This document shows positions 3,801 to 63,940 of a stretch of 64,000 nt of DNA, piece after piece. Both the position numbers and the translations under genes were made by a program. Below the pieces are notes generated by a model that saw nothing but the letters and a program-made list of their open reading frames with translations, was not told the DNA's origin and did no database searches. Position 1 is the stretch's first letter. Each line of letters starts with the position of its first letter. This DNA comes from Pristionchus mayeri (taxonomy: Eukaryota; Nematoda; Chromadorea; Rhabditida; Neodiplogasteridae). The stretch covers positions 49,097,257 to 49,161,256 of the forward strand of contig BTRK01000006.1 in the NCBI GenBank assembly GCA_036245805.1, read 5' to 3'.

Positions 3801-6800
3801 CGCTCTCTCACCTCCACTCCCTCTCTATCCTCCGCTATACCTCTCACTTTCCTTCGGGTTACTAAACTTTTCCGAACGATACGCTCGCCGTCATAACATT
3901 ATTGAACCTCCGCTTTCTTTTGAGAAAATGCAATGTAGACAAACTGAACTGCACAGTTCGAAAGATGTCGAAAAAATGAGCTGAGGTCACTGAACTCCCG
4001 CGCATCCCATTTCGCCGCCACATAACCGCGATATTTAGCGGGGTCCCTAATTGTCCGCAAGCTTGATACATTCACATTTCTGACTCGATTTTTGACTCAA
4101 TTTCTGATCGAAAAACTGCTGAAAGCGTCATCAAATATCGAGATGACTGAGTATAAAGAAGCGAGTGAAGAGAAGGTGACGAATTCTGAAGTCTAGTACG
4201 AAAGAATAAAGCATCGGTAGAGATAGGATGCAAAAAGGGTAGCATCTCTGACTGGCGAGGCACTGGTACTGCCTGCTAGGCCACGCCTACCATTTTTGCC
4301 TCACCGATGCGTCATCCTATCTCCCGACACGGGCGATTATTTCACCTGCTTCAGCAGCGAAGAGCACCGAGTGGAGACTGGCTACCCAAGTGAAGGAGAT
4401 GAATCGGAGTGCATCAAGACATAGCAGGGCATCGGGTTCTCTCTGCAGGGAGAAGACTCTCTGCGAGTTGCGAGGAAGAGAGAAGGCCATCAGCACTTTC
4501 CACCCTGAAATTTTCTCAATTTTTTTATTTATTAGTTATGATTCAATTTGGAAAACAATAAATGAAGATATCCTTGTGGCCGTACTATATATTTTGAGAT
4601 GTGTGAGTGGTGAGAGAGTATATTGAAAGAAGAGAAAATGATATCTTTTTTTTTCAAAATTAAGAGGAAAGTACCAGCTTACCGGCATTCTTACTCAGTT
4701 GTTCGTGCATGCCATTATTCGCGGCCCAATAATCCAGAAAAGACGAAGCGATGGTGATGAAAATGAGAGTCAGGATGAACCCACTGAAAAGAGAATGAAA
4801 TAAATAATGAACGTTGCGTGAATAATTAAAATTTTAATGAAATATAATATTTCTTCATAACATATGAATGACTAAAATAATAATAAAAAAACACCAGCGA
4901 TGATCGTTGATTTTCACGCTTAGAATAAACCGAGATACAGTAGCGAGCAAAACTCTATCACCTTTGAGTTTTTCAAACATAACTTCTCTCAATCTCAATC
5001 AATCTTCACAAATTTTCGGATTCACTAATATTTTATGATTACCAATCGAATCGTCTATCCGGTGGATGTCTCGCGATAGTGTACGGTAGATCACTGAGAA
5101 ATAGATATTTCGCTCAAAATCGTATTTTTCGGTAAAATGTGTGCCAAAAATCGAGAAATAGTGTTATCCAAATATAAATCAGCAGGGTATAAAGTGCATC
5201 TATCGGACTTTCGAATGCGTCTTTTGAATTAATTGAGAATCGATTTTTGAGCGCAGATAGATCAATTCAAACTACAGTACTTTTTAGTACATTTATGGCT
5301 CTAACATTAATTCTAAAGAAGCTATCGAGCTCAAATTGATAGGGTAAGATACTCTAGTGGTCCCTATTCACATTAGGGCGGGGAAAAAGACTCATCGAGT
5401 TGATTCACATGTACAAGTTTGGGGTTGACCGGCCTCGATATCGCCAAAATCGTCACTTTTGGTATGCTTTCCTTTGACGAGCTCTAAGTTCCAGGTAGAT
5501 TTTTTTCGGAACCCAGAAAGTGAAATGGAGATTCTACAATGAATGCCGAACAGATCTGTGAAATTTGGTACATATTGTCCACATTTCCTTATAGATATGA
5601 TACTCTTGCACAATTCGTCAAAAATAGGTAATTTTCGTCAAATTTCGTCCAAAATTACCCGTTTTAAACAAATTTTACAAAATTCAAAGTATCATATCTA
5701 TATGGAAATGTGACCAATAGGTACCAAATTTCACAGATCTTTTCGGCATTCATTGTAAAATCTCCATTTCACTTTCGGATCTCCGAAAAAAAATCTACCC
5801 GTGACTCGTCAAAGGAAAGCATACCAAAAGTGACGATTTTGGTGATATCGAGGCCGGTCAACCCCAAACTTGTACATGTGAATTAGGGCGGCGAAAACGA
5901 TTCTTTGTTTACTCCTCTTTTCGAGTGCTCGAGGGAAGGCGTGTTTACGACCCCTCTCTCGTCGAGTGCTCGTTTTGGCGGAAAGAGAGAGCGAGTGAGT
6001 CGAGTCATTTTCGAGTCGAAATCGAGTCAAGTCGATTTTCTCAGCTCGCAGTAGTCCAAATAATTTAATTTTTGGACAGTTGGATTCCGCTTGACGTGAC
6101 CAGTCGAAAAAGTGTAAACATGAGGGTAGAAATGAGGATTTATTTTTTCCGATTTTTCTTCATGTTTGTGCGGAGAATATCAATATATTCACCGTTTATG
6201 CATAAATACTCTAAAATGTATATGTGTTCGATAGCTCTCATCGAGCTGATTCAAACTGCGCAAAGAATAGGCAATTTGGACCACTCAGAGCAGAGAAAAT
6301 CGCCGACTCGATTTCGACTCGAACCGAATCGACTCACTCGTCCTCTAGGGGGCAATAAAAGGGAGAGCGTCGAGTGCTCGAGAGACTCGATCTCGACTCG
6401 ATCCAACTAGTAAACAAGTCAACTCGATGAGTCTTTTTCCCCGCCCGAATGTGAATAGGGACCATTAGCGTATCTTACCCTATCAATTTGAGCTCGATTG
6501 ATTCTGTAGAATTAATGTTAGAGCCATAAATGTACTAAACAAGTACTGTAGTTTAAATTGATCTACCTGTGCTCAAAAATCGACACCGAAAGATGCACTT
6601 TCTACCCTGCTGATTTATATTTGGATAACGCTATTTCTCGATTTTTGGCACACATACAGAAAAATACGATTTTGAGCGAAATATCGATTTCTCAGTGACC
6701 TACCGTACACTATAGCGAGACATACATCGGATAGATGATTGGATTGGTAATTATAAAATATTAGTGAATCCGAAAATTTGTGAAGATTGATTAAGATTGA

Positions 6801-9769
6801 GGGAAGTTATGTTTGAATAGCTCAAAGGTGATAGAGTTTTGCTCGATACTGTATACAGGACAAATTACCGTCCTGCTCACTTGATCAGATAGAAGAACGC
6901 ATTTGGCTCCTCCTTAGGCCCGTCACAATCGATTTCAGCCACTCGAGCAATATCGTTCGTGATGGTGGCAAGAATCCTACCGATATCCTAAACACTGAAT
7001 GAGTTCGTCTGCCAATTCGTTTCCCTTTCTCGCTACACACTCATCATTCTTTGTCCTGTTCTAATTATAGATATAAAAGACACGAGTTTGGATAAGAATC
7101 AACAGGAGGAGAACCATAATTTGCCCTTAGCATTGTATTAATATGTTGCCACACTTTTTTTTCTATCGATGGGTTTTCACACGACCCGATACCCAAAATA
7201 TTGATTATCGCGTCTTACCGTATCGTCTCTACAGCTGGCCGGCATGCAGAATGCCACCTTCACATTATTCAATGCTAAGGCGTCCTCGATTTCAGGCATT
7301 TTCCCTCCCGGTAAGTGCGAAAGCAGAGACTGTAATGGAAAACCGATGCGATTTGAATTTTTTTTCTTTTTTATGAAATGAAATAATCAGCTGGAACATC
7401 GACTCACCCCCATACCATACTCCTCGGAATTAATTCGTTTCCAGTCCACTTTGACATGCAGAAAACAGTAGTTAGTAGGGAACGGAGCCTGAAATCTCAA
7501 TAACTCATTTCCAGTGTCCTATTTCACTTCTTCCATGAACATAAACAGTGATCGATCACGAGAGAAGGACGAATTGGAGAAAAAAAAGTTACATTCTAAA
7601 GGGGTGCTCCGGGAAATGAATGTTAAGGAGTTCCATCACGACAATTATGTGTTCTCGATGGAAAACTTTGAATGTATGTAAATAGCCTCAGAGGAGTCGG
7701 ACATAGTGACCTATCGGGAGAGTTGCATTAAAAAAGGGTTTCCACGAGTCTCGCCGATAACAAACTGGCACCATGGGGTTATAGAGGGCGTTTTTTAAAA
7801 TAAATGTCTACAAGCTGAACAATTAATTTCTAAAGTATTAGGTTGGTGCATAATTTTCGATACAATGTATTTTGTAAATTTACTGGCGAACACTTCACAG
7901 CTATCAAACCCCGCTTGGGCATTATTTCAGGCAGTGTTAGGTGAAAACAATTATTGGTTTCAACCCGATCGATCCAATGCCAGATCGCCGAAAAACAATG
8001 ATAAGTGAAAATTGGCAAAATTGCCATGTTTTGGGTCTTTCAACAAAATTCATCGCAAAAATTAAACAAATTTAAAGCAAAAATTCCACCCTTCTGAGAA
8101 ACTAATTAGTAAGGGTGGTTGCTTCCATTGAACACGCGAAACCGAAGTTTCGGGCTTCCACAGATTACTGATAATACGAAATATGCTAATTTCGTCGTTC
8201 AAATTTGAGGTTTTAACCCATGACTGCGAATTCTCATGAATGGAATGAGGAATCTTCACCTACTGTCTGTGGTAGCATCTTCATGAGAGGTACTTCAGGT
8301 TATGTTTCATTCGAGACCTCAAGCTCGTTCAGTAAAAACTCATTGTGAAAATAATTGTAATGTGCCATTTTCAACACCCCACAATTTCGGAATACGTGGC
8401 AATTTTGTCAGATCGGTTTCTGGCTGATGCCGATCTCTGTCAATAGTAGAATAGATAATCATCATCCTTCACAATGATGGTGTTGAAGCAGCGCAATTAT
8501 TGCTTCGCCAAGAGTAGTAATCAATCGAAAAGTTTATGAAATTTTTGCAATTCTTAGTCTTTGGAGTATGAATCCACGATAATACTGATTGATGATGTGA
8601 GATGCAATGTGCGCAATGTAGAGTACATATATGTACTAATACTACAAAAGAAAACACATGGGGATTGCTCAAGACCGAAGCAAGATATTGCTCGAAAACC
8701 TTAATCGTGATTTTGTATCGAAAAATATGCACCAACCTGATACATTGAAAATGCAAGCAAATTAAAAATACAGTAGGCATTCAAACCATTGATTGAGAAA
8801 ACGGCCGTTGGATTCGGAAAAGACGGAATTTCGAAATGCACGCTACGTTACACCACGTTGCTTTGCATCGGTTTTCTTCCTTATTATTGAGTTTAATGAA
8901 TTTTTATTGTGAAAACATGGAATGTGCGATCCAGTTTAATGCAATTTACATAATAATATAGTCGAATTAGGCAAATAGTGCTGTACGCAGAATTTAGCAA
9001 AAACCACCGTGCAGTACTCAGCACGCAGTACTGTAATTGTGAGAGTCCATGATTCTGTTTCATGGGAACCCTTTTTTAACAGCACTCCCGGCGACTAAGC
9101 ATTCCCAGGAGCACCCCTTTTAATATGATCGTCGAACTCACTTTAATATTCTTGCACAGTTTGGGATCGCCAGCATATGTGAGCGCTAGTTCATCCAGAT
9201 CCAGTGAATGAGGACGACCCATTGAGGCCATCACTAGAAAAATATTTACAATATTTATTTATTTTTTTTATTTTTTGAAATTATTTATTTGTTTGCGTAA
9301 GCCACAAGGGGAATATTCAGCGAGCGCATAACGTGCATTAATAATTCTTCAAAGAAATGCTTTGGGGACTCACTTTGCAACGCGTATGACGCATTCTTAA
9401 TAGTCTCGTCCTTTAGACAATCAAGGCTTTTACAGTTCTAAATATTATCAGAATTTTGAATGGTCAAATATAGATAATAGTTGAATAATTATTATCCAAA
9501 TGTTACACCCGAGCTGTCAATCCCGCAAGTAGAAGGTCTTCGGACGTCCGTAAGATTTCTTTGAAGCATTGAGTCTCCACTTTCGTTACTTCTGAGTATA
9601 TTTTGAACAAAGGAATGCTAATGAAGGCTGGAATGTCCTGGAAAATTTTCGTTTTATTAATACATTTTAAATCCATATCATTAAAGAATAATGGATTGCA
9701 ACTTACAAATATGTCGAAAGGAAGCTGCGCTGTAATTAGTGGCAAGAACAATATCATCACCGGCCTCAT
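864..9769 (-). CDS. NRF-6-like membrane acyltransferase-3 protein (partial, 3' end missing)
   Basis: Fifteen exons keep phase throughout, in transcription order: 9707-9769, 9509-9637, 9374-9437, 9142-9233, 7408-7488, 7219-7329, 6881-6987, 4683-4783, 2941-3065, 2603-2676, 2337-2424, 1923-2009, 1564-1648, 1131-1248, 864-1002. They give 487 residues. The N-terminus is a signal peptide (MRPVMILFLPLITAQ). About 200 residues of Cys-containing extracellular NRF domain follow, including VAFCMPASCRDD. From about residue 217 come membrane segments of the acyltransferase-3 domain, with hallmarks SVDTFFLISGLLVSY, CEDTWWMNVLYIQNF, SWFLSVDMQLYWIAP and YVKPWTRCIPYLTGILCGY. In C. elegans, nrf-6/ndg-4 family members affect fluoxetine response and intestinal lipid or yolk handling. 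The last segments normally found after the KPW motif are absent. An in-frame TGA at 864-866 may instead lie past a weak donor (GTACAA). Introns 4, 7 and 8 are unusually long and repeat-filled. The exon 9 donor (GTGGCG) is weak. Confidence 0.88.
2435..2527. mobile_element. Palindromic MITE (type B) with 8-bp target duplication
   Basis: This is a 93-bp near-perfect palindrome beginning GAGCAATGGTCTGCCTCTC and ending with its inverse. It is flanked by exact 8-bp direct repeats GCAATAAC at 2427-2434 and 2528-2535, which is hAT-type behaviour. It lies in intron 10 of the acyltransferase gene, so that one copy of the duplication forms part of the 3' splice site of exon 11. A second family member is at 61615-61727. 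Confidence 0.85.
4938..6851. mobile_element. 1.9-kb foldback element with Tc1-type ends, in intron 7
   Basis: The arms of roughly 450 bases (from about 4938 rightward and 6851 leftward) are inverted copies of each other with scattered mismatches. The ends read CAGTAGCGAGCAAAAC and its inverse, flanked by TA on both sides. This matches the TACAGT terminus typical of Tc1/Tc3-like elements. The interior has a second palindrome at about 5375-5890 (arms around TACAAGTTTGGGGTTGACCG), so the element is itself nested or composite. No transposase reading frame was seen. It fills almost the whole intron between exons 7 and 8 of the acyltransferase gene. Confidence 0.85.
7728..9079. mobile_element. TTAA-flanked TIR element, long copy, in intron 4
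   Basis: The ends are inverted (AAAAGGGTTTCC on the left, the inverse of AAAAGGGTTCCCATGA on the right), each bounded by TTAA. The 1.35-kb interior has many stops and no intact transposase. A 473-bp deletion derivative with the same ends lies in opposite orientation at 33522-33994. TTAA flanks suggest a piggyBac-type mechanism, but TA-type integration into an AT-rich site cannot be excluded. Confidence 0.7.
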
Positions 9770-10646: not shown

Positions 10647-11286
10647 TAGAGTTCGAAATTCGGGTCACGCTCTCTTCATTCTACACACTCTCTAGACCGG
10701 TCAATCGGCGAGAGAGTGAGTAGAATGAAGGGGGGGGGGGGTGACAAAAGAGCAACGGAACTCCATTCGCTGGAGATTCGAGCTAGCCACTTGGGAGTTG
10801 TTGCATTGTAACCAGTATGTGCTACCCTACATTTGCGTGTATAAATCTTGTCACCAGGCGATCATGAGTTTCACTCCATATCTATGTATTCATGGTCCAA
10901 AATTGAGAATTTGAGTGGAAAATCAAGGCTAGATAATTTCGAAATGCCGTAATCAACCGATCTCTTTGTTCTTGATTTAGAGAAGATACTGGGGTACTGG
11001 AATATCGATTGGTTACGGCACATTGTGCCTATCTAACAACGATTTTCCACTCAAATTCTCAATTTTGGACCATGAACCCCTATACATAGATATGGAGTGA
11101 AACTCATGATCGCCTGGTGACAAGATTTATACATGCAAATGTAGGGTAGCACATACTGGTTACAATGAAACAACTCCCAAGTGGCTAGCTCGAATCTCCA
11201 GCGAATGGCGTTCCGTTGCTCTTTTATCGGTTGCTCTTTTGTCACCCCCCGAATGAAGAGATCGTGGTGTCATTTCTCGAACTCTA
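10647..11286. mobile_element. hAT-type MITE (type A) split by a nested MITE
   Basis: Outer palindromic MITE with ends TAGAGTTCG and CGAACTCTA, flanked by exact 8-bp direct repeats TTTTGCAC (10639-10646 and 11287-11294). The outer element itself is only about 110 bp. Its length here comes from an inserted second element at 10731-11250. Other type A copies are at 24884-25016, 38994-39107, 54506-54617, 57583-57695 and 61247-61358. The YAGNG-like terminus and 8-bp duplication fit the hAT superfamily. Confidence 0.9.
10731..11250. mobile_element. Second foldback MITE nested inside the type A MITE
   Basis: A 520-bp element with arms of about 190 bases. It begins with a G run then TGACAAAAGAGCAACGGAA and ends with the inverse. 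It is flanked by exact 8-bp direct repeats GAATGAAG (10723-10730 and 11251-11258), which are part of the outer MITE's own sequence. Removing it with one repeat restores the standard type A palindrome. The arms differ at only a few positions, so the insertion is fairly young. Confidence 0.9.
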
Positions 11287-11294
11287 TTTTGCAC

Positions 11295-11836
11295 CATCTC
11301 GATCGGTTGAGCCAGGGTGCACGTGCGCACTACCTCCTTATCGAGAACCGAGTATTGAAAATACTTAAAAATTGCAAAGTCGTGAGATAAAAGCAGTATA
11401 AATCAGGTAAAATCTAAATTTCAAATTTTGAAATTTTATGCTAATGCAATCTCGAATATAAGGTTCGGGGAAAATGAGAACGATACCAGCATATGCGTCT
11501 TGTTCAGGGGATCATTTTCCGGATACATAGTAGGATATTATAACCATCTTTGAATGCATTACATTGAACCCAGTTCACAAAGATCCAACACTTCGTTGTG
11601 TTTCTTGTGAAGTTCATTTCGAAATAGTTTCTAAGCAGTTCGATGACATCATCGTTGTCTTCTCTCTGTCTTGGAGAAACGGGGAAGATCCCGGTTCTTG
11701 AGTGATCGATGCAATTAGTTCACTCACCCCTTAATATCATCGATGTGATCACACGTTTATCTTTATCCGAAAATAATAAGATGCAAATGCTATAATCGTC
11801 TCACTAATTGAGCCTTGAGAAGGAAGTGCAACGTAC
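11295..11836. other. Intergenic, no feature recognised
   Basis: No exon with consistent splice sites or coding bias was seen on either strand. The words CCCAGTTCACAAAGAT at 11570 recur at about 14268, so some sequence is shared with the region downstream of the STR receptor fragment. Confidence 0.3.
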
Positions 11837-13530
11837 AGTCGCGCCGGTAAGTCATGGGACACTTTTTGAATTTGTTGTATCTTTTTGCCCAGGAAATGCA
11901 TCATTCTGGCACTGAGGTATGATGTACCAAATCGATCGGAGATTTTGATCATGGTATTATGGTATGACATCATCGCATAGTTATTGCGTAGTGATGACGC
12001 AAAAGTGCAATCTGCACTTTTTCAAAACGGCATTATTCTTACATAGATTTTTTCCTGTTCGCCATACTTTCTATGATTGGAGATATGACCGAGACCTACA
12101 GAGAATATTTTTTCAAGGTGCTGCTCGGTCGCACATTTGCTGCAGCGAAGCTGCAAAAACAGGATCCAAAATTCGGAACTCGGCTTCTAGAGTAGCTAGA
12201 GACCCGTTCAAAGCATCAAAATTATGGCCAACATGAGTGCACGTGATCCTGAGAATATGAATACGATATCTCATAATTTGCTCTTAGGGCATGAAAAAAT
12301 TTCTTTTTAGCATTACCATTTTTTGGACATCCATAACTTTACGGAAAAGTTTAGTAAAAATCTGATTTTTATCTCATAATGTTCAATATGTATTGAAGAA
12401 CTGAATTCCAACTTTTTAGGGCGTTTGGATATCTTTCCAGCCCGCGGCGTGGGTTTTTAGGAGGTATACTAGGGTCGGTAAACACCTTGTTTACCGCTAT
12501 GGGAGAGAGAGTGCAGACGACGAGAGTGCGTAAACAGCGTGTTTTCCGACCCTAGTATGCCTCCGATAAGAGATCGCCGCGGGCTGGAAAGATATCCAAT
12601 CGCTCTAAAAAGTTGGAAACCAGTTCTTCAATACATTTTTAACATTACCAGATAAAAACCAGATTTTTACCTAACTTTTCCACAAAGTTATGAATGTCCA
12701 AATAATGGTCATGCAAAAAAAGAGATTTTTTCATGCCCTGAGAGCAAATTATGAGATTTTGTCTTCATATTCTCAGGACCTTCTGGGATCATGATGACGA
12801 TCATTTTGATGTTTTGAACGAGTCCCTAGCTCGTCTAGAATCTGAGTTCCGAATTTCAGATCCTGTTTTTGCAGCTTCGCTGCAAAAACATTTTTTTTTG
12901 TTTTTTCGTTTCGTCATAAATGTGCGACCGAGCAGCACCTTCAAAAATTTATTCTGGGTAGGCCTCGGTCACACCTCCAATCATAGAAAGTATGGCGAAC
13001 AGAAAAAAATCTATGTAAGAATAATGCCGGTTTGAAAAAGTGCAGATTCATTTCGTCATCACTACGCAATAACTATGCGATGACGTCATACCACAATACC
13101 ATGATCATAATCTCCGATGGATTTGGTACATCATACCTCACCAGGAATGGCCTCGAGGGTAGGTTGGAGTTTTGGAACTAGACCTAGCGGAATCGAATGA
13201 GGGTTAAATTCTAAGAAATTTTACGTTTTTCATATCTGCTGAGGGCCTCTGTGGACCGCTGGGTTGTAGTGAGATTTCAGAACATAGCCTGAGAAATTGG
13301 CGGTTTTGCACCTCTCCCCACTATGCGCGCAGACATACACAGAGGCCCTCAGCAGGTATGAAAAACGTAGAAGTTCTTGGAATTTGATTCTCTTTCGATC
13401 CCGCTAGGTCTCGTTCTAAAACTCCAACCTACCCTCGCGGTCATTCCTTGTCAGTGCCAGAATGATGCATTTCCTGGGCAAAAAGATACAACAAATTCAA
13501 AAAGTGTCCCATGACTTACCGGAGCGACTG
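11837..13530. mobile_element. 1.7-kb foldback element with Tc1-type ends
   Basis: The ends read CAGTCGCGCCGGTAAGTC and its near-inverse, with TA on each side, the Tc1/Tc3 TACAGT pattern. The arms are about 650 bases and match closely; for example GCAGCGAAGCTGCAAAAACA at about 12140 has its inverse at about 12870. The centre near 12500 is a further palindrome around GACCCTAGTATGCCTCC. A third element is inserted in the right arm at 13141-13464. The only ORFs in it are palindrome shadows. Confidence 0.88.
13141..13464. mobile_element. Palindromic element nested in the right arm of the 1.7-kb foldback
   Basis: The inverted arms read GAGGGTAGGTTGGAGTTTT and its inverse. The left arm of the host foldback has no counterpart, so this is a later insertion into the right arm. 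The host sequence is interrupted between CCTCA and GTGCC, and TCA precedes the element and ends it, suggesting a short (2-3 bp) duplication. Confidence 0.75.
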
Positions 13531-14337
13531 TATATCTTGCCTTTTCTAGATTTTTTGTTCGCGATGAGACGTTTCGTCATATGCCAGTAGCTCTCTTCAA
13601 TAAGTGCTTCCTTGCTATCCTTGCTATTTCTAGGAAACGCCTAACAAAAAGATATTGCGAAGTCTTTCTTTGTATGATTGAGGAATGATCCGCCATTTTA
13701 CCGTCGCTCGCTCGTTTCCTTGTGGGCAAACGCCTTGCATTCTCTAAACATCCTTCCAATCCCCCTCGCTAAGCCTGCCCTTCTCCATTAGTGATTCACA
13801 GAACTTCTACTTATCGTAAGCACACGCACAACATTATTCATTATTCGCAGTGCAAGGGCCACACCAAAATTGCAAAGGATATGACTACTTAGTGTATCTG
13901 CAATGGACACTACATTTATCGGCTTCTGGATTGCATATCCATTTCATATCCCGTCTTGTAAAAAAGGAGGAAAAAAGCGAAGGGTGGCTCATTTACATTG
14001 TTTTCCGAAACAAACATGGTATTATTCTTTTGGCACATTGTTTTTAATGTTCAGCATATGTTTAATTGATAAAATTCCCCGGAAAGTGAAATCTTCTGTA
14101 CTCTTTCTCAATCGGTACAGTATCTAACAATAGTCTATAATTTGTCATTCGTTAATCATCATTAATTCGTTAATCATCATAATTTTTTCGTAGGTCACAC
14201 AGACTACGAAGTGCATCGTTCTTTATGTTATGGCGAATAAGCTTCCGCTTTTTTTCGAACAACCAAAACCCAGTTCACAAAGATGGCTGCACATTACACC
14301 ACTGGTTGCTTTTGGCGTTTATCAAATACGTAATAAA
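13531..14337. other. Intergenic; 3' flank duplicated with 15870-16080
   Basis: No exon was seen. From about 14110 the sequence is a diverged copy of 15870-16080 (shared words include CTAACAATAGTCTAT and AAGCTTCCGCTTTTTTTCGA), part of the partial tandem duplication described under the STR receptor fragment. Confidence 0.55.
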
Positions 14338-20764: not shown

Positions 20765-20890
20765 GGAGTTCCGCTATTGGAGTATTCCACATGATACTGC
20801 ATATCGATAAATTCGTTCGCATGCCAGCTATTCGCAGACTCACTATAATTGTTGGAATGCTAGAATACATGCCATCCCGGGTATTATTAA

Positions 20891-22968
20891 AACACGTTCT
20901 CTGTAAGACTCGGACGACCCATTTCAGGGGGTGGCACAAGGCTTCAAAATGGTCGTATCGACTTGCAATTTTCAGGTTGTCATTCCTATGGGTAGGGTAT
21001 GCTCCCACATAATTTTTGTACCCCTACCTCAACATTTTGACCTACCAATTTTGAAAAATTAAACTCAATATCGACGGGCATGCTATATATCATTCGAAAG
21101 AGCATGAAAAGTTATGCATAAATCCATGTTTTCGTAAGAATTGGTGCATGTGCTCACGAGATATCTCATGAAAAGTGCACTTTCAAGCAGTTTTCGTGAT
21201 GGAAGCCAATGATAGGGTAGCTTTCACAGCAATTTTTTTGCATAAGTCGGTGCAGAATTTAATTCTCTATCGGCGTATTAAATACGAAGTTTGTCCCCTA
21301 TTTATGTCATACGGTGGATTTTATATCACGCATTCGTCGATCAGGGTTCAAATCCTGCACGGTGCATGATGTTTTGCCGACTTTTTTTCTCACCGATCAA
21401 ACCTTTGTGAGTGAATTACCTATTTTAAACTACTTCTTGATCGTTATAAACCCACTAATGATTAGAAACTCTATCCCGATCCTACCATTCCACTCCATTT
21501 TGCCATATTTATTTATCGATCAGACATATTACCACTCGTTCGTACTAACACTTAATTGAAATACTAGCTTAATTCTTGTTAGATATTTCGGTGGCCCCAT
21601 ATATCGAATTCATATACATATAAATCATCCATCTTACTATTATTAACACTAACAACGGGGAATGCAATCCCGAGCGATCGAAGATGCCATCGGAATAACT
21701 ATAAGAACCCGTTTGCTAAGAATCGGACAATTTTGAAGAATTTTGGCATCGGCCAAAAACATCAAATCGCTCTATCTCTGCCTTTTGGGGTTATCTGACA
21801 CGCTGATGACGATATGCATATTCATTTTGCTCAAAAATCGATCGTTGGCTCCAGAAGGAGTGGCGTCGAAAACTGACTTTTTCGAATATCTTGATCCCAG
21901 AGGATGCTAAAATTAAGCGCGCATGATGTCCAGGACAGAATTGAATGGCGAACACGTCTGTCTAATTCTTTTTTCATTAACCATTTAAATAAATTAGTAA
22001 AATTTACCTTTTTAGTCTCTCAATTGTACCCTGAGAGACATAGCTCTTATCGAGAGGAACCCAAATCTGTGCTTAAATATAAATAAAAATCGCCCAAGGC
22101 TTATTCCCGCGATATAGTGAACGTTGCTGCATGCTGAATTTGCGATTACATTGTTCCTTCCCTTGATCTACCCGAGTCTGTCTGTCCCGTGACCCCTTCC
22201 CATCTCCCTCCCCTGAGCCTCGCATCCCTCCCCTCCCCGACACTGTGCTTTTTCACTCAAAATTGCTCACTATATCGCGGGCATAAACCTTCGGCGATTT
22301 TTTAAAAATATTTAAGCACAGATTTGGGTTCATCTGACTGATCGATAAATAAATGTGACAAAATGTAGTCGAATGGTAGACTCGGGATAGAGTTTCTAAT
22401 CATTAGTGGGTTTAGAACGAGCAAGATGTTGTTTAAAATAGGTAATACACTCAAAAACGTTTGATTGGTGAGAAATAAAAGTCGGAAAAACATCATGCAC
22501 CGTGCAGGATTTGAACCCTGGGCGACGAATGCGTGATAAAAAATACACCATATGACATAATTAGGGAACAAACTTCGTAAAATGAATTCAATACGCCGAT
22601 AGAGAATTAAATTCTGCACCGACTTATGCAAAAAAATTGCTGTGAAATCTACCCTATCATTGGCGTCCATCACGAAAACTGCTTGAAAATGCACTTTTCA
22701 TGAGATATCTCGTGAGCTCATGCACCAGTTCTTACGAAAACTTAGATTTATGCATAACTTTTCATGCTCTTTCGAATGATATATAGCATGCCAGTCGATA
22801 TTGAGTTTCATTTTTCAAAATTGGTAGGTCAAAATGTTGAGGTTGGGGCACAAAAATTATATGGGAGCATACCCTACTCATAGGAATTACACCCTGAAAA
22901 TTGCAAGTCGATATGACCATTTTGAAATCCTTGTGCCACCTCTCTCCGAGTCTTACAGAGAACGCGTT
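20891..22968. mobile_element. 2.1-kb TTAA-flanked foldback element
   Basis: The ends read AACACGTTCTCTGTAAGACTC and its near-inverse, each bounded by TTAA. The arms of about 670 bases match from both ends (for example TGGGAGCATACCCTAC at about 22860, inverse at 20990). The centre holds a smaller palindrome at about 22050-22340 (CCGCGATATAGTGA/TCACTATATCGCGG). The mirror-image ORFs at 21175 and 22302-22694 are the same sequence read from the two arms, not genes. Confidence 0.85.
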
Positions 22969-23717
22969 TTAATTTTGTAACAAAGTCCAATGGGACCCCA
23001 CATCACAGAGGTAGTCCGCACACTTTTCTAAAATAAACTTGTTTGTGCTCATTTATCGGGTTTGATTCGTGTCTTTCGTAGTTCTTGCATGCACATTTTG
23101 ACCTTGTAAGTTTTTTTGCATTTGACCAATCAACTAATGATTTTAACGAGTATTTGGGCTAATGATTATTTCATACCCCCTCTCAGTATCGAGCATTATA
23201 TTGGGTCGGTTCGATAAATGGAGATATGATAGTTCAATTCGGAAGTAGTCAAACTATACTTTTCAATCTTCCAAAGTTCCATGGAGAACTGAGTTGAGCT
23301 CGACTTTGACGCTAATATAGAGGACTATGATTGGGCATACAAATATAGAGGACTATGATTGGGCATCAAATGTGACACAGTAAGGATATTCAGCTTTTTA
23401 AAATATGGCCCTAATTATCGAATCAAACTCATTTTTTTAAAATTCGGAATTCCCATTAATGAGCTCAGAATCGATACATATGTTTGATCACTTTGACGAA
23501 TTCTTTATTCAATATTTTTTTTCAATTGATTGATGATCCCTCGAGTGTTTTGCTTGCCCGGTGATGTTTACAGTAGCTACTCACCAGGATGTTGTCTATG
23601 AATAGCTCACGACATCATGCGACCAGCCACTGACCACCCACAGTTTATATTCGAGATCGTGAGGGTGATGCAAATCACAGTTTACACTGAGCGGTTGTTG
23701 GTTGCCGATTCGTGCTG
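22969..23717. other. Decayed transposon sequence upstream of the receptor-like gene
   Basis: The sequence at 23115-23280 (GACCAATCAACTAATG, then TCGAGCATTATATTGG and TTCGGAAGTAGTCAAACTA) is a diverged copy of the left part of the element at 25736 (same words near 25800-25920). The short sentence ATAGAGGACTATGATTGGGCAT occurs twice in tandem at 23320-23366. No exon was seen. Confidence 0.5.
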
Positions 23718-40666: not shown

Positions 40667-42718
40667 TCACGGAAACAAGGCGTCGAACTCCTTCCTGAAC
40701 ACTTCGCACCTGCAATGAAATTTATTAATTAAAAAAAAAAAAGTTCTTATTTAAAAAAATCAATAATTTAAAAAAAACTGACGGTCCGATCATGTATTCG
40801 TCCATGAACTTCGCAGCTTTCACCTTGTCGAACTTCTTGACCAACTTCTCCACTTCGTCCCTTTTGCCCGCCTGGAAATTCCTGTATTTCTCTGAATTCA
40901 TTAGTAAATTTTTTTGTCAGATTGTTCAGAGTTAGAACATGAAACAAATATCGAAGCTATCCAGAGTGCGGTCCTAATTGTAAGGGCTATACAAATGGGT
41001 TCATCTCATTTTGAGGAATTGTGGATGCGGTGGTTTTTTGGTTTGCTCGGCGTCAAGTGTGATATTATTCGAAATGTGACATGACGATATCACTTCCGTA
41101 CTGGTTCTTGGTCGATCGGGGTCAAATCAAACAAACGTTGAGCAGTTTGAAGCACTTCATGACGAACTGCTTCAGCTCCTTGTCCTTCTCGTTCGCTAAC
41201 TGCTTCATCATAGGAGCCGCGCATGCTTCTGAAATATTAATTTATTTTTGTAAATATTAGGTTGAACAGAAAGTCTTTATAAACTGTTTTGCTCGATCAC
41301 TGCTCAGTGCACGAGACCTTTGGTGTTCCCTCGCCTCTAGTGAATAACAAATGACAAAGGGACTATGTGGTCAACAACTCCCCATTCCACGCCTTTCATT
41401 CTGCTACTAGTAAGATCACGATGTTTGTTCACACGGCCTTGCACATCCGCAACGTTCTGTTATTCGTATTCCTCTCTCACACTACAATGAAGGAATAGGA
41501 ACGTCAGTTGGCTGAAGTGTACGATTCATATGCCACTCCTTACCAGACCATGCGCAATTGGTACCAACTCTTCGAGAAGAGGGACTTTTCCATGGATGAT
41601 CATGACCGGTCTGGGAGGCCACCCGAGCTGGATTTGGATGCGCTACGGATCGTAGTGGAATTGGATCCTTTCCAAATACCCGCGACATGGCAGCCACACT
41701 TGGGGTATCGCAAAGCACCATCGTAAAATGATTGGTCTCCATTGGCAAGAAGAAGAAGCTAGGCCGTTTCATACCCCACAAATTGACCCAAGACCAGTTT
41801 GACCACCGTGTCGACGATTCCCTTTCTCTACTCACTCTTCACGCTGGACATCGATGGGTGGACCGTCTCATAACAGGGGTCGATAAGTGGGTCTGCTATG
41901 AGAATCACCATAGGAAGGCACAGTGGGTGGATGCCAATGAGACCCCACAGGACGTCGCAAAGCCTGACCTTCACCCTATGAAAATCTTGCTCTCTGCCTG
42001 GTGGGGAGTGGATGGCCCGATTTACTGGGAGCTCCTACCCGAGAAGCGGATAATTACTGGATATGTCTACACTAAACAACTACGGAATTTCAAGAAGAAA
42101 TCCGCACAATCTGCCCTGAACGGCAAGAAAGTGTACTATCAACACGATAACGCCCGACCCCATGTTGTACGGCAGGTCAAGCAGGAGCTGTTCAAATATG
42201 GCTGGATGGTTCTCCCTCATACACCGTATTCTCCTGGCTTGGCCCCTTCGGATGATTGGTTGTTCTCGGATCTGACCCGTCATCTCGATCAGAGATCCTT
42301 CATTTCCCGTGGGGCGATCGAGGCCGCACTCAAGCAATATTTTGATTCGCGCCGAGATGGGTTCTATAAGGAGGGAATCCATAAGTTGCCTGAACGTTGG
42401 AGATTTGTCGTAGATAACAATGATGCATACGTTTGATTTCGCTCTTGCGCTTTATTGTCAGAAGAATTGAAATAAAAAGTTTATAAAGACTTTCTGTTCA
42501 ACCTAATATATTAAATTAAATTGTTTATTACGCTAGCGTGCAGCGCACGAGATTTTACTGTGGCTAACAGTCTAGAGGATGTGCATACTCAGCTTGTAGA
42601 ATGGGAAGGAGCGAAATTTCGGGTGCGAGATAAACGTGGAAAATATTAACTGACCTTCCTCGGGTGTCATTGCGATCACTACGATCAGCAAAGAGGAGAG
42701 AACAAGGAGCAGTCGCAT
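40667..42718 (-). CDS. Small secreted protein, paralog B (95 aa), family not recognised
   Basis: Four exons in phase: 42655-42718, 41137-41228, 40783-40871, 40667-40709 (TGA). Signal peptide MRLLLVLSSLLIVVIA, then the same charged helical body as paralog A, with three Cys in ACAAPMMKQLA, VMKCFKLLN and IGPCEVFRKEF. An AATAAA lies on the minus strand about 20 bases past the stop (complement of 40640-40647). Intron 1 contains a mariner (41257-42506) running against the gene. Directly upstream, 17 bases before the ATG, begins a 2.9-kb pair of foldbacks; the sequence beyond them (45670-45990) resembles the upstream region of paralog A. The coding frame is intact, so loss of function, if any, would be regulatory. 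Confidence 0.87.
41257..42506 (+). mobile_element. Mariner element A, copy 2 (inactive), in intron 1 of paralog B
   Basis: A 1250-bp element with the same TTAGGTTGAACAGAAAGTCT ends and TA flanks as copy 1. The transposase carries the same defects: early stop after the first ATG, frameshift near 41670, TGA just before 41732, and TGVDKW in place of TGDEKW. The long frame 41732-42436 differs from copy 1 by one residue (Asp for Gly near the C-terminus). Confidence 0.92.
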
Positions 42719-42734: not shown

Positions 42735-43994
42735 TATCACGCGTATCACGAGTCGGTGGATGAAAAATTACCTCCTCAGGAACATTTTCACAAAAGTTGT
42801 GCCGAATATCGTTCATATTACTGTGGTAGAATACCCTAGAAGTAAGATTTCGAATAACATAGGTCATTGGTCCCAGAGCCGGCTTTTAGAAATTTTCCGG
42901 TTTTGCACCTGGCTATCGTGTATGTCAGCTCCCAGATGAGCTACAGATATGGCGTTTAGCTCAAAATGTGCAGAAAAAAGTTTCCTGCAACTTTTATGTT
43001 GTACACGAGACGTTTGGACAACATTTAAAAAAAATATGAGTAAAAAACACATTTTGTCAACAAAATAAAAATATTTTCTCTGGCACGCAGTGGAGCGCAG
43101 CAGAATTTTAATGCAGATTATGAAACAACAAGTCGACGTGTATGATATAAAAATATAAAAGCCAAATTCGAAGTACCTCCAACTTGGTAATTTTCACTCA
43201 AACTTGGCACTCTGAAGAAAATGTCGAAAAATGACATTTTTCAGAACGTTGATTTTTCTTCTTTAACTGTTCACAAATTGTTGATAGAGTTGAGTAAAGT
43301 AGGTAAATCTCATTATTGAGGATACTAATTCGAGAATGAACATTGTAACGCATATGTAGGGCTAGTTACCTCGAAATTAGACAAAATTAATAATTTAGAC
43401 AGCAATATCATTTATAATTAGTTGTGCATACTTCAATTAACTCTAACAACAATTTGTGAACAGTTAAATAAGGAAAATCAACGTTCTGAAAAATGTCATT
43501 TTTCGACTTTTTCTTCAGAGTGCCAAGTTTGAGTGAAAATTACCAAGTTGGAGGTTCTTCGAATTTGGATTTTATATTTTTATATTTTTATATCATACAC
43601 ACCGAGTTGTTGTTTCATAATCTGCATTAAAATTCTGCTGCGCTCCACTGCGTGCCAGAGAAAATATTTTTAATTTGTTGACAAAATGTGTTTTTTACTC
43701 ATAATGTTTTTAATTGTTGTCCAAACGTCTCGTGTACAACATAAAAGTTGCAGGAAATAATTTTCTGCACATTTTGAGCTAAATGCCATATCTGTAGCTC
43801 ATCTGGGAGCTGAAATACACGATAGCCAGGTGCAAAACCGGAAAATTTCTAAAAGCCGGCTCTGGGACCAATGACCTATGTTATTCGAAATCTTACTTCT
43901 AGGGTATCCTACCACAGCAATATGAACGATATTCGGCACAACTTTTTTGAAAATGTTCCCGCACACCTCCTCTGACTCGTGATACGTGTGTTAT
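42735..43994. mobile_element. 1.26-kb foldback element (TATCACG family, copy 3)
   Basis: Starts TATCACGCGTATCACGAGTC and ends with the inverse near 43985. The arms are about 560 bases and nearly identical (for example CCAAACGTCTCGTGTACAAC against its inverse). They share the AGCCGGCTTTTAG and CAGCTCCCAGATGAGCTACA words with copy 1. The centre is near 43350. Confidence 0.85.
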
Positions 43995-44002
43995 ACCACA
44001 GG

Positions 44003-45660
44003 TATCACGAGTCAGTGGAGAAAGCCAGGAACAATTTTTTTTCAAACCTTCTCAAATTCGATCATACTATAAATGTATCTTAGTATAGAGACTAGATTAC
44101 GAAAGAGCCAGGTCATTTGTCCCGCAGCCGGCTTTTAGGCATTTTACGGTTTTTGTTCCGGCTACACTGTATATCAGCTCATTTTTGAGCTACAGACGTG
44201 GGATTGGTCTTAAAATGAGCAGAAAAATATGACGAGAAAATTTCGCGTTGGAAACATCCTGCTCAGACAAAAAATAAAAATGTTAGGTCCTGAAAATCAA
44301 ACTTCAAAGTAGATAAAAAATAATTTCACTGTCACGCAAGTGCGTTGCAGTGAATTTTATTTCATACTATGAAAGAAAAAGTCAATATGTGTCACATAAA
44401 AAAATTGCGTGGGAGGTTTCGGGTATGTTCCGTTTGATATGCTTGACTGAAAATGCGGTGCCGCTCATGCCGAGAACGTAAATATGCATTCTACAAGTTT
44501 TTTAAAGCACTATCTTCTATATTTCAGCATTTCCTAAAGTTTCATACCAGTGCCCAACTGTAAACACTACACTACTCAGAATTGTCGTCATTCCTAAAAA
44601 TTTGATTTTTCGCACTCAATTTTTCTTGAAAATATCACACGGAAATTTGACATTTCCGAAACTAATATCCATATTCTCGAGTATATTATTTTAGTATGCT
44701 TTGTGATGTTGCAGAATATCCTCCGAAAGGGCTCTACTGAGCTTCCCAAGATGTTGTTATAATTGCTCGAAAATCGAAAATGTTGGGTTCGTTTATCAAG
44801 AAAAAAATTATTCATCCGTGATTTTGAGTACACTGGTCTTATTTTACCATTAGTATGTTATATGCTATCTGAGGATATAAATAAGAGTGCATACATGTCT
44901 TATTTAGATGATTTTTAAAATATCATTTTTTTTGAAAAAAATAAAATTTGAAAATTTTTCAAAACAGGCAAACAATGATTTGATTATTATTTCCTAATGA
45001 ATTTGCCGCGGGACATAGTGACTGAGATAAAATTGTGTCATATTTGCCAAAAACACGCCCGAATTTCATGAATCGAATTTTTTTACCTCGAAATTTCACG
45101 TATTCGAGTAATTATAACAACATCTTGGGAAGCTCAATAGAGCCCTTTCGGAGGATATTATACAACATCATAGAGCATACTAAAATAATCATTTTCAGTC
45201 AAGCATATCAAACGGAACATACCCGAAACCTCCCACGCAATTTTTTATGTGACACATATTGACTTGTTCTTTCAAAGTATGAAATAAAATTCACTGCAAC
45301 GCACCTGCGTGATAGTGAAATTATTTTTTATCTACTTTGAAGTTTGATTTTCAGGACGTAACATTTTTATTTTTTGTCTGAGCAGGATGTTTCCAACACG
45401 AAATTTTCTCGTCATATTTTTCTGCTCATTATAAGACCAATCCCACGTCTGTAGCTCAAAAATGAGCTGATATATAGTGTAGCCGGTACAAAAACCGTAA
45501 AATGCATAAAAGCCGGCTGCGGGACAAATGACCTGGCTCTTTCGTAATCTAGTCTCTATACTAAGATACAGTTATAGTATGATCGAATTTGAGAATGTTT
45601 GAAACATATTGTTCCCAAGGTGGTTGTTTTTGCTTCATCGACTCGTGATACATGTGATAC
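44003..45660. mobile_element. 1.66-kb foldback element (TATCACG family, copy 4)
   Basis: Starts TATCACGAGTCAGTGG a few bases after copy 3 ends, and finishes CGACTCGTGATACATGTGATA. The arms of about 650 bases carry GCAGCCGGCTTTTAGGCATT and its inverse. The interior differs from copy 3. The central 200 bases around 44900 are not inverted. Confidence 0.83.
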
Positions 45661-47547: not shown

Positions 47548-47776
47548 TAATATTTTCAGTTGCATTACAACGAAATTGCTTGTCAATCGCTCACAGGCGT
47601 TATGACTGTATCATCTGGAGCCTTAAGCCTTAAATATATCACCAGCGAATGCGTCTGAAGCGTCAAGAGGATAGTTGATGTACATATTTTGCACGTTTCA
47701 TCAGTCTTTGGCTGAAGATAAATACGATGATATGCCGGGAAATGATTTGTAAACAAAATAAAAGCTCCGAACGCTC

Positions 47777-48105: not shown

Positions 48106-48134
48106 GAACTGAGACTGGCATTCTAGACGTGATC

Positions 48135-50760: not shown

Positions 50761-50763
50761 TCT

Positions 50764-54312: not shown

Positions 54313-54315
54313 TGT

Positions 54316-54617: not shown

Positions 54618-54625
54618 ATGACCTA

Positions 54626-55179: not shown

Positions 55180-55592
55180 ACAGTTCCATTTTTTCTCAAA
55201 ATTGTGGGCAAAACCGCAGCTGAAACTTTTGCTGTTTGCGTAGTTTATCATGGGCTATCGAATGAGTGGCTTGCCATGAAAATACCGGCGGGAGAACACG
55301 AGTTATGCCAATTTTACTGTTTCCGATCGTGAAGACTTTTCCTTCTACCCCGCACCGCGCGCTTTCGAGCGATTGGAATGGAATGATCCATTGTTCCTTG
55401 AAAGTTTAGCTCGCTCGCTCGAAAAGGGGCGGTGCGAAGTGCAATGAAGAGATTTCAAATGATCAGAAACTGTAAAATTGACATAACTCGTGTTCTCCCC
55501 CAGGTATTTTCATGGCAAGCCACTCATTCGATAGCCCATGAGAAACTAAAGGTTCAGCTGCGGTTTTGCCTACAATTTTGAAAAATGTGGAC
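55180..55592. repeat. Inverted repeat of about 410 bp
   Basis: The arms share CAAAACCGCAGCTGAA, CATGGGCTATCGAATGAGTG, and the words around ACACGAGTTATG, inverted in the right half. The centre holds TCGCTCGCTCGAAAAGGGG. The plus ORF 55150-55332 lies within the left arm and is not a gene. Confidence 0.75.
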
Positions 55593-59434: not shown

Positions 59435-59618
59435 GCGAATGGTTACGAGAAACTATTCGTAACGTCCTGCTGCATAGTTACCTTTTTTTAACTAAATTAC
59501 TATATGTACCAGTTTCCCCACATGCATACTATTTGTCGCCTACACGCATAATATTTGTTAACTCAATATATTTGTCTTACATGATAAACTCAGGATCACT
59601 CCATGTACAAGGGTAATA

Positions 59619-60847: not shown

Positions 60848-60849
60848 TA

Positions 60850-61924: not shown

Positions 61925-63940
61925 CCTAAAATCCACAACAGTCCATACGCCCATCGGGGTGTTCGTTCGACCTATGTAGTGTTTTCCCAACCACCATTCG
62001 CTTGGGGGGCACTCACCTGTAGTCCCTCATGAGGATCATGATGATGACGGCATCCCAGAGGGGGAAGCACGAGATCATCGTCGCGCAGACATCGTCGATG
62101 AGGACAATCGGAATATTGAAGAAGGGGAAGTTGAGAATGCAGAAGTAGGGAATGTACACGAAGAGCAGAGGAACTGCCGTCTGCAAATTATCCACTCGGT
62201 CGGACGATCACCGTCGGATGACCTATCGGATGATACACACTAATTGTACCCTTCTGCAGTATTTTCGAGGAAGACTTGAAAGTATGGGAACATTCTGCGA
62301 AAATCCTACAGAAGGATATCATTTTTGGTTATCTTCCGACGGTAATCATCCAAACTAGTGCCACAAATCGTGCTCAAGATTTGGAACTAATTGATGGTTG
62401 TCTATTCAGAAGTAGGTCAAGATAAAATAGCAAGTGTTCCTCCTCCCACTTCCCTAGAACAACAGCGCAACTCGAAATATCTTTTCATACAAAAGCGCAA
62501 CTCGAAATATCTTTTCATAGAGCGTTGATAGACCTTTGTGGTTAGACTCAACTAACAACTAATGATTAACAGCTCTGAGGGCATATTAGCGACATCACTG
62601 AAAAAAGTGACGTCACTATTTTTAGACGGTTCATGGTAAAAAAATCGTGATATAAGTTTGTGTTGGATTTCCAGGTATCAACTTCCACACAATCTGTCAT
62701 ACACCCTCTTCAATTTGTCGGCTACCGTATCTCGAAACAACATAATCTAGATGATATATGACCAAGAAAATATGGTTGCTTTCCATCAATTTGCAACCCT
62801 ACGTTAGCTATATTACGATGTACCGGGATACGGTAGCCGATAAATTGAAGAGGAAGTAGGGTAGGTTGTCTGGACATTGATACCTCGTCTAGATCCAACA
62901 CCAACTTCTATCACGATTTTTTACCATGAACCGTCTAAAAATAGTGACGTCACTTTTTCAGAGACGTCACTAATTAGCCCTCAGGGCAGATACTGCTAAT
63001 CATTAGTAATTAGTTGCCACAAATCACGTAGTTGAATCACCACTCTCGACAGAGATATTTCGAGTTGTGCTTTTGTCGCTTGCGCTTCTGTCATACCTCC
63101 TCTTAGAGGATTCTCATACACCGGAATCTACCCGGATACGGCCAACTATGACTAGAAATCGATAAATCGAAAGCAAACAATTAATGTGCGATTACGATAT
63201 TTTGTAAAACTCACCAAGGTCGGTGAGCTTCCCAAAATACCGTAATCGCACCAAAATATTTTGCATTTGATTTATCGCTTCCTGCCATAATTAACCGAGC
63301 ATATCCGGGCCTATTCCGGCAAATCGACCATGATAAAAATTATGAGCAAAATCACTGCTTCCAAATTTACATATTCGCAATTACTCCGAAAAGTGAAATT
63401 TTTCCGGTGCGGCTCGGTGACCGTTCCGAGTTTGCTAACAGGTACGATATGTGAAAGAATTGGGGGGGGGGGTATCTCTTTTTGGGAGGAGTGAAATTAA
63501 TTCGTGATTCGAAGATTGGTTTCAAGCGCCTCAATTATTGATCCGTAATACGATTCCCTCATACCTGTCCGCACACTGCCAATAGCAACTTGTACTGCAG
63601 ATTTTGCGAGAATTCAGACATTTTGTCCGATCGTTTAATGTGGTAGTAGGAGAGAATGCCGAAGGTAGAGGAAAGCGTGAAAGCTCCGAATATTATCGCA
63701 TCGAAGAACAACAACGAGAAGAACATTTTGGGTTGAAATTCTCCGTTTACCTGAAGATCATCTCTGATTTTTGATTTTTTGATTCTGATTTCTGATTTTC
63801 TGTTTTATATTATCTTCTTTATTACCCAATGAGCCATTACAATCCATCCCTCGGTCTGATTCCGCCCGTATCTTTCGGATAATTCCTTAGCCAGACGAGC
63901 ATTTTCCGAGTCGGTTGTGCCGTACAGCAGTAGATGGTAC
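61925..63940 (-). CDS. STR-family chemoreceptor, 5' part beyond the window
   Basis: Three phase-consistent exons are visible: 63826-63940 (extracellular loop ending GWIVMAHW), 63565-63750 (TM5, LLFFDAIIFGAFTLSSTFGIL, to LQYKLLLAVCGQ) and 62017-62180 (TM6 and TM7, AVPLLFVYIPYFCILNFPFF and SCFPLWDAVIIMILMRDYR). The sizes of the last two are close or equal to those of the 56686 receptor (195 and 164 bp). The first four or so exons lie beyond 64000. The last exon is uncertain: the only good acceptor (GATTTTAG, exon start 61925) gives RDSR and a stop in phase, whereas a neighbouring frame stays open for 28 codons with a Ser/Thr tail like other family members. This hints at a one-base indel. The 1.4-kb intron before TM6 holds a foldback. 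Confidence 0.85.
62490..63085. mobile_element. 0.6-kb foldback in an intron of the STR receptor
   Basis: The left arm from AGCGCAACTCGAAATATCTT is mirrored at the right end (AGATATTTCGAGTTGTGCTT). The arms share GACGGTTCATGGTAAAAAA and AGTGACGTCACTATTTTTAG inverted. The middle has a second inverted pair GGCTACCGTATC and GATACGGTAGCC. The first 24 bases of the left arm also occur once more in direct orientation at 62464. Confidence 0.85.

What the first reader, a model, noticed from the sequence alone, without database searches (positions are those of the whole stretch)
4938..63085. About a fifth of the window is long, well-matched palindromes from several unrelated families
At least eleven foldbacks of 0.4-2.1 kb lie at 4938-6851, 10731-11250, 11837-13530, 20891-22968, 26341-27653, 29569-30820, 30818-32713, 42735-43994, 44003-45660, 55180-55592 and 62490-63085. 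Arms within one element match far better than arms between elements of the same family, so either each arose by its own inverted duplication or the arms are kept alike by gene conversion. Several sit in introns in transcribed orientation, so their pre-mRNAs would carry hairpins of several hundred base pairs. In nematodes such RNAs are Dicer and ADAR substrates, so these could be a genome-encoded source of small RNAs acting on the matching mobile elements or on host genes. This is the best candidate here for an undescribed system.
Basis: partly seen in the sequence, partly recalled or inferred. Interest (0 to 1): 0.8.

Follow-up and report, generated by a model that had tools for sequence, protein, structure and literature searches.

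The report
Palindromic jumping DNA with self-correcting arms
About a fifth of this worm-genome window is old, hairpin-shaped "hitch-hiking" transposons that have copies across the genome; the kind is known, but the two halves of each hairpin seem to rewrite each other, which helps explain why such hairpins stay so well matched.

Summary
The palindromes are real: eleven foldbacks cover 14,575 bp (22.8%); ten shuffled windows gave none. Contig lengths identify the genome as Pristionchus mayeri. All eleven have dispersed relatives elsewhere in the genome, so they are palindromic non-autonomous DNA transposons (MITE/foldback type), not an undescribed system. In the E5-E9 group, 27 of 30 scorable insertions have exact 4-bp NTAN target duplications (0 of 20,000 shuffles). 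E1, E3 and E4 carry other repeats inside them. Independent inverted duplication is rejected for the four families tested. E5 has a 259-bp identical tract that differs by at least 9.3% from all seven fetched copies. E1 probably lies in an intron of an NRF-6-like acyltransferase gene; the other ten were not placed. Small-RNA and ADAR claims could not be tested.

The parts
4935..6854 (.). E1: palindromic element with TA-flanked CAGT ends (Tc1-like, family recalled); other copies about 1.35 kb; contains a nested repeat; probably in an intron
5884..6450 (.). repeat nested in E1; 33 separate matches of it listed at 88-94%
4784..6880 (-). inferred intron (2097 nt) of an NRF-6-like acyltransferase gene that holds E1; neighbouring exons 7329-7219, 6987-6881, 4783-4683, 4504-4346
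   Evidence: (PF01757 E 3.9e-14)
10743..11228 (.). E2: 486-bp palindrome; arms 84%, best other copy 96%
11834..13532 (.). E3: palindrome with TACAGTCGC ends (TA, Tc1-like, family recalled); nested repeat inside
13141..13450 (.). palindromic repeat nested in E3; absent from the 4 other distinct full-length copies examined
20886..22973 (.). E4: foldback with TTAAAAC at all 12 ends read; nested repeat inside
21702..22335 (.). repeat nested in E4, found separately elsewhere at 82-87%
26334..27660 (.). E5: palindrome, TTAA target duplication (NTAN form); arms 92% (blastn)
26456..26714 (+). left half of a 259-bp perfectly identical tract in E5: recent arm-to-arm conversion (inferred)
27289..27547 (-). 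right half of the same tract
29569..30819 (.). E6: palindrome, TTAT target duplication
30818..32715 (.). E7: 1.9-kb foldback, arms of about 790 bp at 96%, 326-nt spacer, ATAT target duplication; abuts E6
42735..43994 (.). E8: palindrome, TTAT target duplication
43994..45660 (.). E9: foldback, ATAC target duplication; right arm looks shortened relative to other copies; abuts E8
55192..55585 (.). E10: palindrome; arms 76%, other copies 75-86%
62489..63076 (.). E11: palindrome; arms 75%, best other copy 81%
35491..36753 (-). mariner copy (not a foldback arm): own ends; inverted relative to 41246-42508 at 99.4%
41246..42508 (+). mariner copy with Transposase_1 (PF01359) ORF 41732-42436

Best explanation
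The eleven foldbacks are non-autonomous DNA transposons that are themselves palindromes (palindromic MITE / foldback type), from several families, three of them carrying another repeat inside. Each tested family descends from a palindromic ancestor and spread as a whole unit, presumably by cut-and-paste insertion, making NTAN duplications in the E5-E9 group and probably TA in E1/E3 (duplications shown for the copies tested; the transposase was not found). Within a copy, or in the active masters, the two arms later rewrite each other by gene conversion or an equivalent correction of hairpin mismatches. This keeps arm interiors matched, while in the E5, E7 and E8 families the outermost 50 bp escape (pattern shown, molecular mechanism inferred). 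As transcribed sequence, such as the E1 intron, they would give long hairpins open to ADAR and Dicer; that is an expected side effect, inferred and untested.
For: All eleven queries hit dispersed relatives on several chromosomes. Full-length copies are listed for eight (E2, E4 once, E5, E6, E7, E8, E10, E11) and found for E3 once its insert is left out; E1 and E9 matched only in parts. Target duplications: exact 4-bp match in 27 of 30 scorable insertions (5 of 35 not scorable; L054/L056 are one insertion counted twice), 4.9 expected on re-pairing, 0 of 20,000 shuffles; NTAN form on 29 of 30 on each side. E7 copies share a spacer of 296-348 nt at 84-98%. Conversion: without it, own L-R and other-copy L-R identity have the same expectation. 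Arm interiors give 0.962 vs 0.915 (E7, 9 copies), 0.951 vs 0.935 (E8, 15), 0.935 vs 0.884 (E5, 8), each 0 of 10,000 partner shuffles; E3 (5 copies) 0.930 vs 0.914, 80 of 10,000. The outer 50 bp show no such excess in E5/E7/E8. A left-arm clade is rejected for the E5, E7 and E8 interiors (AU p 1e-6 to 4e-35). Sites where two copies differ while each copy's arms agree: 1002 vs 204 expected (E7), 591 vs 173 (E5), 887 vs 316 (E8), 135 vs 45 (E3); the expectation ignores rate differences among sites. E5's 259-bp identical tract differs by at least 9.3% (mean 12.1%) from the arms of the 7 other copies (0 of 1000 weighted shuffles).
Against: No transposase was linked to any family. On whole arms the E8 family shows separate left and right clades (100/100), and its own right arm is the best right-arm match of the left arm in only 6 of 16 copies (5 of 8 in E5, 6 of 9 in E7, 4 of 5 in E3), so conversion there is modest. 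The interior/outer boundaries were chosen after seeing the profile. Only 4 of 11 families were tested for conversion, on 37 copies (one E8 duplicate dropped). Only 5 of 37 copies have a longest identical run that at most 10 of 1000 weighted shuffles reach. E3 shows no spared outer end.
Confidence: 0.86

Rival explanations
1. Each palindrome arose by its own inverted duplication of a single-arm element.
For: Own arms are more alike than arms of other copies in the E5 and E7 families.
Against: Full-length copies share both ends and, in E7's family, one spacer; NTAN duplications flank the whole unit; whole-arm left/right clades in E8 and left-with-left groups inside E7 lineages.
Confidence: 0.05
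2. A host-maintained source of small RNAs against mobile elements or host genes, the palindrome being selected as an RNA hairpin.
For: Very stable predicted hairpins from both strands; E1 is probably in an intron; C. elegans intronic inverted repeats are dsRNA/ADAR substrates (PMC4282642 passages).
Against: Structure, copy number and target duplications are explained by transposition; no expression data; arm matching is explained by conversion without selection on RNA.
Confidence: 0.08
3. Assembly fold-back artefacts.
For: Nearly identical large inverted repeats exist elsewhere in this assembly (an 8.8-kb palindrome at 99.4%).
Against: Window arms differ by 4-25%; independent full-length copies with different flanks.
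Confidence: 0.01
4. Arms are alike because palindromic masters were re-made or homogenised several times and then spread, with no conversion in resident copies.
For: In E7's family, arms cluster by lineage and then by side, as if homogenisation happened in lineage founders.
Against: Window E5 has a tract not shared by any of the 7 other copies examined, though a closer unexamined relative could share it; spared outer ends.
Confidence: 0.25

Closest known systems
Palindromic MITEs and foldback transposons of C. elegans (Tc4, Tc6; recalled, papers not seen; one look-up by DOI was not held)
   Same: Almost wholly palindromic 1-2 kb non-autonomous elements with long arms, dispersed, in a nematode
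   Different: As recalled, Tc4 uses TNA and Tc6 TA target sites; the E5-E9 group has NTAN. Sequence relationship not tested
Tm1 Mutator/foldback family of root-knot nematodes (PMC3169594, passages)
   Same: Nematode elements with long composite inverted repeats and MITE-like members, one with an unrelated inverted-repeat element nested inside
   Different: 9-bp target duplications; composite arms; members encoding a putative transposase were found
CMC/Chapaev transposons (PMC4079192, passages)
   Same: 3-4 bp target duplications and CAC/GTG termini, as read in E6-E9 and window E5
   Different: No transposase linked here; the Chapaev3 group uses TWA, not NTAN; left ends of four other E5 copies read CAG
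Galileo foldback-like element of Drosophila (PMC4168063, passages)
   Same: Very long, dynamic terminal inverted repeats
   Different: P superfamily, 7-8 bp duplications; the term 'gene conversion' does not occur in that main text
Intronic inverted-repeat dsRNA loci of C. elegans (PMC4282642, passages)
   Same: Long inverted repeats and transposons in introns, the RNA context expected for E1
   Different: Measured there by RNA editing and J2 pull-down; no RNA data here

Membership tests
Palindromic MITE / non-autonomous foldback DNA transposon | Many dispersed copies with the same ends | tested here: met
   11 of 11 elements have dispersed relatives; full-length copies for 9 of 11 (E3 after leaving out its insert), parts only for E1 and E9
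Palindromic MITE / non-autonomous foldback DNA transposon | Target site duplication of fixed length | tested here: met
   27 of 30 scorable insertions of the E5-E9 group (5 of 35 not scorable; one insertion counted twice); E1/E3 TA and E4 TTAA only read by eye; E2, E10, E11 not examined
Palindromic MITE / non-autonomous foldback DNA transposon | Whole element folds on itself | tested here: met
   paired fraction 0.78-0.89 in the eleven elements
Palindromic MITE / non-autonomous foldback DNA transposon | No transposase gene | tested here: inconclusive
   Of the stop-to-stop ORFs of 120 aa or more, only two overlap an element (both E4), and those were not scanned; no other coding test of the elements
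CMC/Chapaev | 3-4 bp target duplication | tested here: met
   4 bp, NTAN
CMC/Chapaev | CAC...GTG termini | tested here: inconclusive
   Read in E6, E7, E8, E9 and window E5; left ends of four other E5 copies (L069, L070, L072, L074) read CAG; my scoring patterns assumed such ends
CMC/Chapaev | CMC-type DDE transposase | not tested
   Longer relatives of E9 and E4 were located, but their interiors could not be fetched
Tc1/mariner (E1, E3) | TA target duplication and CAGT-type ends (recalled) | tested here: inconclusive
   TA next to CAGT at both ends in 5 of 5 E3 copies and in window E1, but this cannot be told from a terminal TA of the element
Tc1/mariner (E1, E3) | DDE transposase mobilising it | not tested
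   no search was made for it
Endogenous hairpin siRNA locus | Phased Dicer products from the arms | not testable with these tools
   No RNA data
ADAR substrate | A-to-I edited clusters | not testable with these tools
   No RNA data; a search for the ADAR domain PF02137 in the genome did not complete three times

The most novel reading that the evidence does not exclude
Palindromic transposons are self-repairing: mismatches in an extruded hairpin or cruciform, or exchange between the arms, are corrected continually in resident copies, so hairpin-forming ability (and with it dsRNA output) lasts long after transposition ends. The outermost 50 bp escape because they are rarely in the stem or are held apart by transposase-binding constraints.
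Probability: 0.3. Interest if true: 0.65.

Novelty: new member of a known kind. Interest (0 to 1): 0.42.

Why it matters
Long inverted repeats and transposons in introns are described sources of dsRNA in C. elegans (PMC4282642, passages). If the arms of palindromic transposons correct each other, arm identity is neither a clock of age nor proof of recent origin, and hairpin potential can persist for long periods. The pattern (homogenised interior, unconverted outer ends) can be tested genome-wide in any species with such elements, and it would be a clean system for studying arm-to-arm conversion in short inverted repeats.

Tried and rejected
Independent inverted duplications: rejected for four families (shared ends, spacer, target duplications). 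Assembly artefact for the window elements: rejected by arm divergence. The 35491/41246 inverted pair as a twelfth foldback: rejected, two mariner copies with their own ends. Mirrored flanks as a general property: 2 of 37 E3/E5/E7/E8 copies compared (L008, L051) have them; seven of the 37 (fetched E5 copies) were compared over only 20-63 bp, and the window's E3 was not found by that script. An E4 copy at C3:31105173-31107234 also shows about 25 bp. Pfam scan of E1's host gene from its first four exons found nothing; with ten exons it gave PF01757. Host genes around the other elements: I listed candidate exons and scanned seven ORFs (two of them belong to the E1 gene), none above a curated cut-off; I built no further gene models, so 'intron' is untested for E2-E11. 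Early whole-arm statistics used longer arms that overlap at the centre in the shortest E3 and E8 copies, by up to about 40 bases, with shorter arms, are the ones I rely on. One search read one strand only and was replaced. Rows dropped: E8 copy L056 (near-identical segmental duplicate of L054), not; identical sequences counted once; loci without a near full-length match left out (15 of 30 E7 loci and 24 of 30 E8 loci were full length, 9 and 16 distinct; 5 distinct E3 copies and 8 E5 copies, window included). Paper searches for arm gene conversion in palindromic MITEs or foldbacks (15 of 19 and 5 of 5 papers listed, titles and abstract starts only) showed none about it by title or abstract start; subscription papers are mostly not held, so this does not show that it is unpublished. 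A P. pacificus repeat survey (PMC9297572, passages) has no occurrence of 'palindrom', 'Chapaev' or 'CMC' in its main text; a review of nematode chromosomes (PMC9071541, passages) gave nothing on such elements.
Full report
Self-comparison finds all eleven foldbacks at the stated places, with ends within about 22 bases. They cover 14,575 bp, 22.8% of the window, and ten dinucleotide shuffles of the window give no inverted match at the same threshold. As RNA, each element would fold from either strand into a long stem: energies are roughly two to three and a half times those of four unrelated window stretches at each of three lengths, and the longest uninterrupted helices are 259 bp (E5) and 196 bp (E7).

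The genome is Pristionchus mayeri. A protein search with the host gene beside E1 returned P. mayeri proteins on contigs of 57,250,744, 48,753,889, 50,323,401 and 44,588,995 bp, exactly the lengths of contigs C6, C4, C5 and C2 here (taxonomy).

All eleven are transposon-like repeats. Each element, searched against the whole genome, hits relatives on several chromosomes. These tables score only the best 40 candidates, so copy numbers are lower bounds. Identity of the best other copy against identity between own arms, in percent: E1 86 (half the element; 93 over 439 bp) vs 84-87, E2 96 vs 84, E3 (401-bp piece) 94 vs 82, E4 98 vs 90, E5 87 vs 92, E6 90 vs 85, E7 95 vs 96, E8 95 vs 90, E9 93 over 1196 bp (95 over 779 bp) vs 93, E10 86 vs 76, E11 81 vs 75. 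So the statement that own arms match best holds for E5 and narrowly for E7, and is reversed for seven elements.

Insertion anatomy. For E5, E7 and E8 copies plus E6 and E9 in the window, 30 of 35 insertions could be scored. 27 of the 30 have an identical 4-bp flank on both sides, against 4.9 expected when flanks are re-paired and 0 of 20,000 shuffles reaching it; the form is NTAN on 29 of 30 on each side. L054 and L056 are one insertion counted twice. The elements start CAC and end GTG, apart from four E5 copies whose left end reads CAG; my patterns assumed such ends, so the termini are not an independent test. Three- to four-bp duplications and CAC/GTG ends are given as hallmarks of Chapaev transposons in PMC4079192 (passages). 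E1 and E3 have TA next to CAGT ends, as in Tc1-like elements (family recalled); E4 has TTAAAAC at all 12 ends read. E1, E3 and E4 each contain another repeat; E3's is missing from the four other distinct full-length copies examined. E6/E7 and E8/E9 abut each other.

How the arms stay alike. If a palindromic founder spreads and the arms then evolve apart, the left arm of one copy should be equally distant from its own right arm and from the right arm of any other copy. I tested four families with 9 (E7), 16 (E8), 8 (E5) and 5 (E3) distinct copies. In arm interiors the own partner is closer: 0.962 vs 0.915 (E7), 0.951 vs 0.935 (E8, 15 copies after dropping one duplicate), 0.935 vs 0.884 (E5), each 0 of 10,000 partner shuffles, and 0.930 vs 0.914 in E3 (80 of 10,000). 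Same-arm identity between copies equals opposite-arm identity to three decimals in E5, E7 and E8: the left/right label carries no history there. A left-arm clade is rejected for these three interiors (AU p 1e-6 for E8, 4e-35 for E7 and E5; the smallest values should not be read literally; E3 was tested on whole arms only, p 0.001). In the outermost 50 bp of E5, E7 and E8 the excess vanishes (own 0.844, 0.874, 0.839; other copies 0.883, 0.914, 0.852), and in E5 and E8 the same arm of other copies is clearly closer (0.947, 0.919). E3 has no spared end (own 0.968 vs 0.900, 163 of 10,000). These boundaries were chosen after seeing the profile. Against a strong effect in E8: on whole arms that family shows clean left and right clades (100/100), carried by the arm ends, and the own right arm is the best match of the left arm in only 6 of 16 copies.

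The most direct case is in the window. E5 has 25 arm mismatches in 501 aligned columns, yet 26456-26714 and 27289-27547 are perfectly identical over 259 bp, a stretch that differs from the arms of the seven other copies by at least 9.3% (mean 12.1%; 0 of 1000 site-weighted shuffles). Four of the other 36 copies also have a longest run that at most 10 of 1000 shuffles reach (L010, L042, L003, L007); the remaining 32 do not. In E7's family, arms group by lineage first and by side second, which also fits homogenisation in lineage founders. I therefore hold arm-to-arm conversion, in the wide sense, to be well supported, and leave open whether it happens mostly in resident copies or in active masters, and whether by recombination or by correction of hairpin mismatches.

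Gene context. Four phase-consistent exons on the minus strand (7329-7219, 6987-6881, 4783-4683, 4504-4346), followed by six more that I joined, make an NRF-6-like acyltransferase (PF01757, E 3.9e-14; the first four alone matched no Pfam family). The joined protein aligns across the exon 2-3 junction to arthropod relatives. E1 fills 1,920 of the 2,097 nt of that intron. The P. mayeri protein record P0122 starts downstream of E1 and splices one later junction differently, so the intron is my inference, not an annotation. I did not place the other ten elements in genes.

RNA consequences. A hairpin from the E1 intron is expected if the gene is transcribed. In C. elegans about 25% of expressed genes had inverted repeats in introns over 1 kb, and over 98% of edited regions held inverted repeats and/or overlapped transposons (PMC4282642, passages).

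Verdict: real, well explained as palindromic non-autonomous DNA transposons; the added value is the evidence for arm-to-arm homogenisation that spares the outer ends in three of four families tested.

Noticed in passing
G000:C5:42275500-42284335 (L076, L008, L077): An 8.8-kb palindrome at 99.4% identity with an E3-family copy at its centre and mirrored flanks: either a real recent inverted duplication seeded by the palindrome or an assembly fold-back.
   Followed up: partly
L051; G000:C3:31105143-31107264 (L084, L085): Two more copies (E8 and E4 families) whose flanking DNA is mirrored on the other side, over about 197 bp and about 25 bp.
   Followed up: partly
L045/L046, L054/L056, L060/L062: Pairs of copies about 4-25 kb apart in inverted orientation with flanks over 99.5% identical: larger inverted duplications in the genome or assembly.
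   Followed up: partly
G000:C6:39284389-39289854: A tandem array of ten units of about 349 bp made from a piece of the E8 arm: a satellite-like array grown from a palindromic element.
   Followed up: no
window 29569-32715 and 42735-45660: Two pairs of palindromic elements inserted end to end (E6/E7 and E8/E9), with NTAN sites at the joints.
   Followed up: partly
window 46317-47549 and 59617-60849: Two mariner copies 98.9% identical; one has a 348-aa open transposase frame, in the other the frame is interrupted.
   Followed up: partly
window 48108-50084: A 659-aa frame with DUF1759 (PF03564), as in BEL/Pao gag (family link recalled).
   Followed up: no
window 20138-20614: Tandem-repeat stretch with a repetitive frame rich in GSTTGVFVGGSQTSLPPRP-like units just upstream of E4.
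   Followed up: no
window 1131-7329, minus strand: NRF-6-like acyltransferase gene; the deposited P. mayeri protein P0122 lacks the exons upstream of E1, so the palindrome may have upset the gene model.
   Followed up: yes
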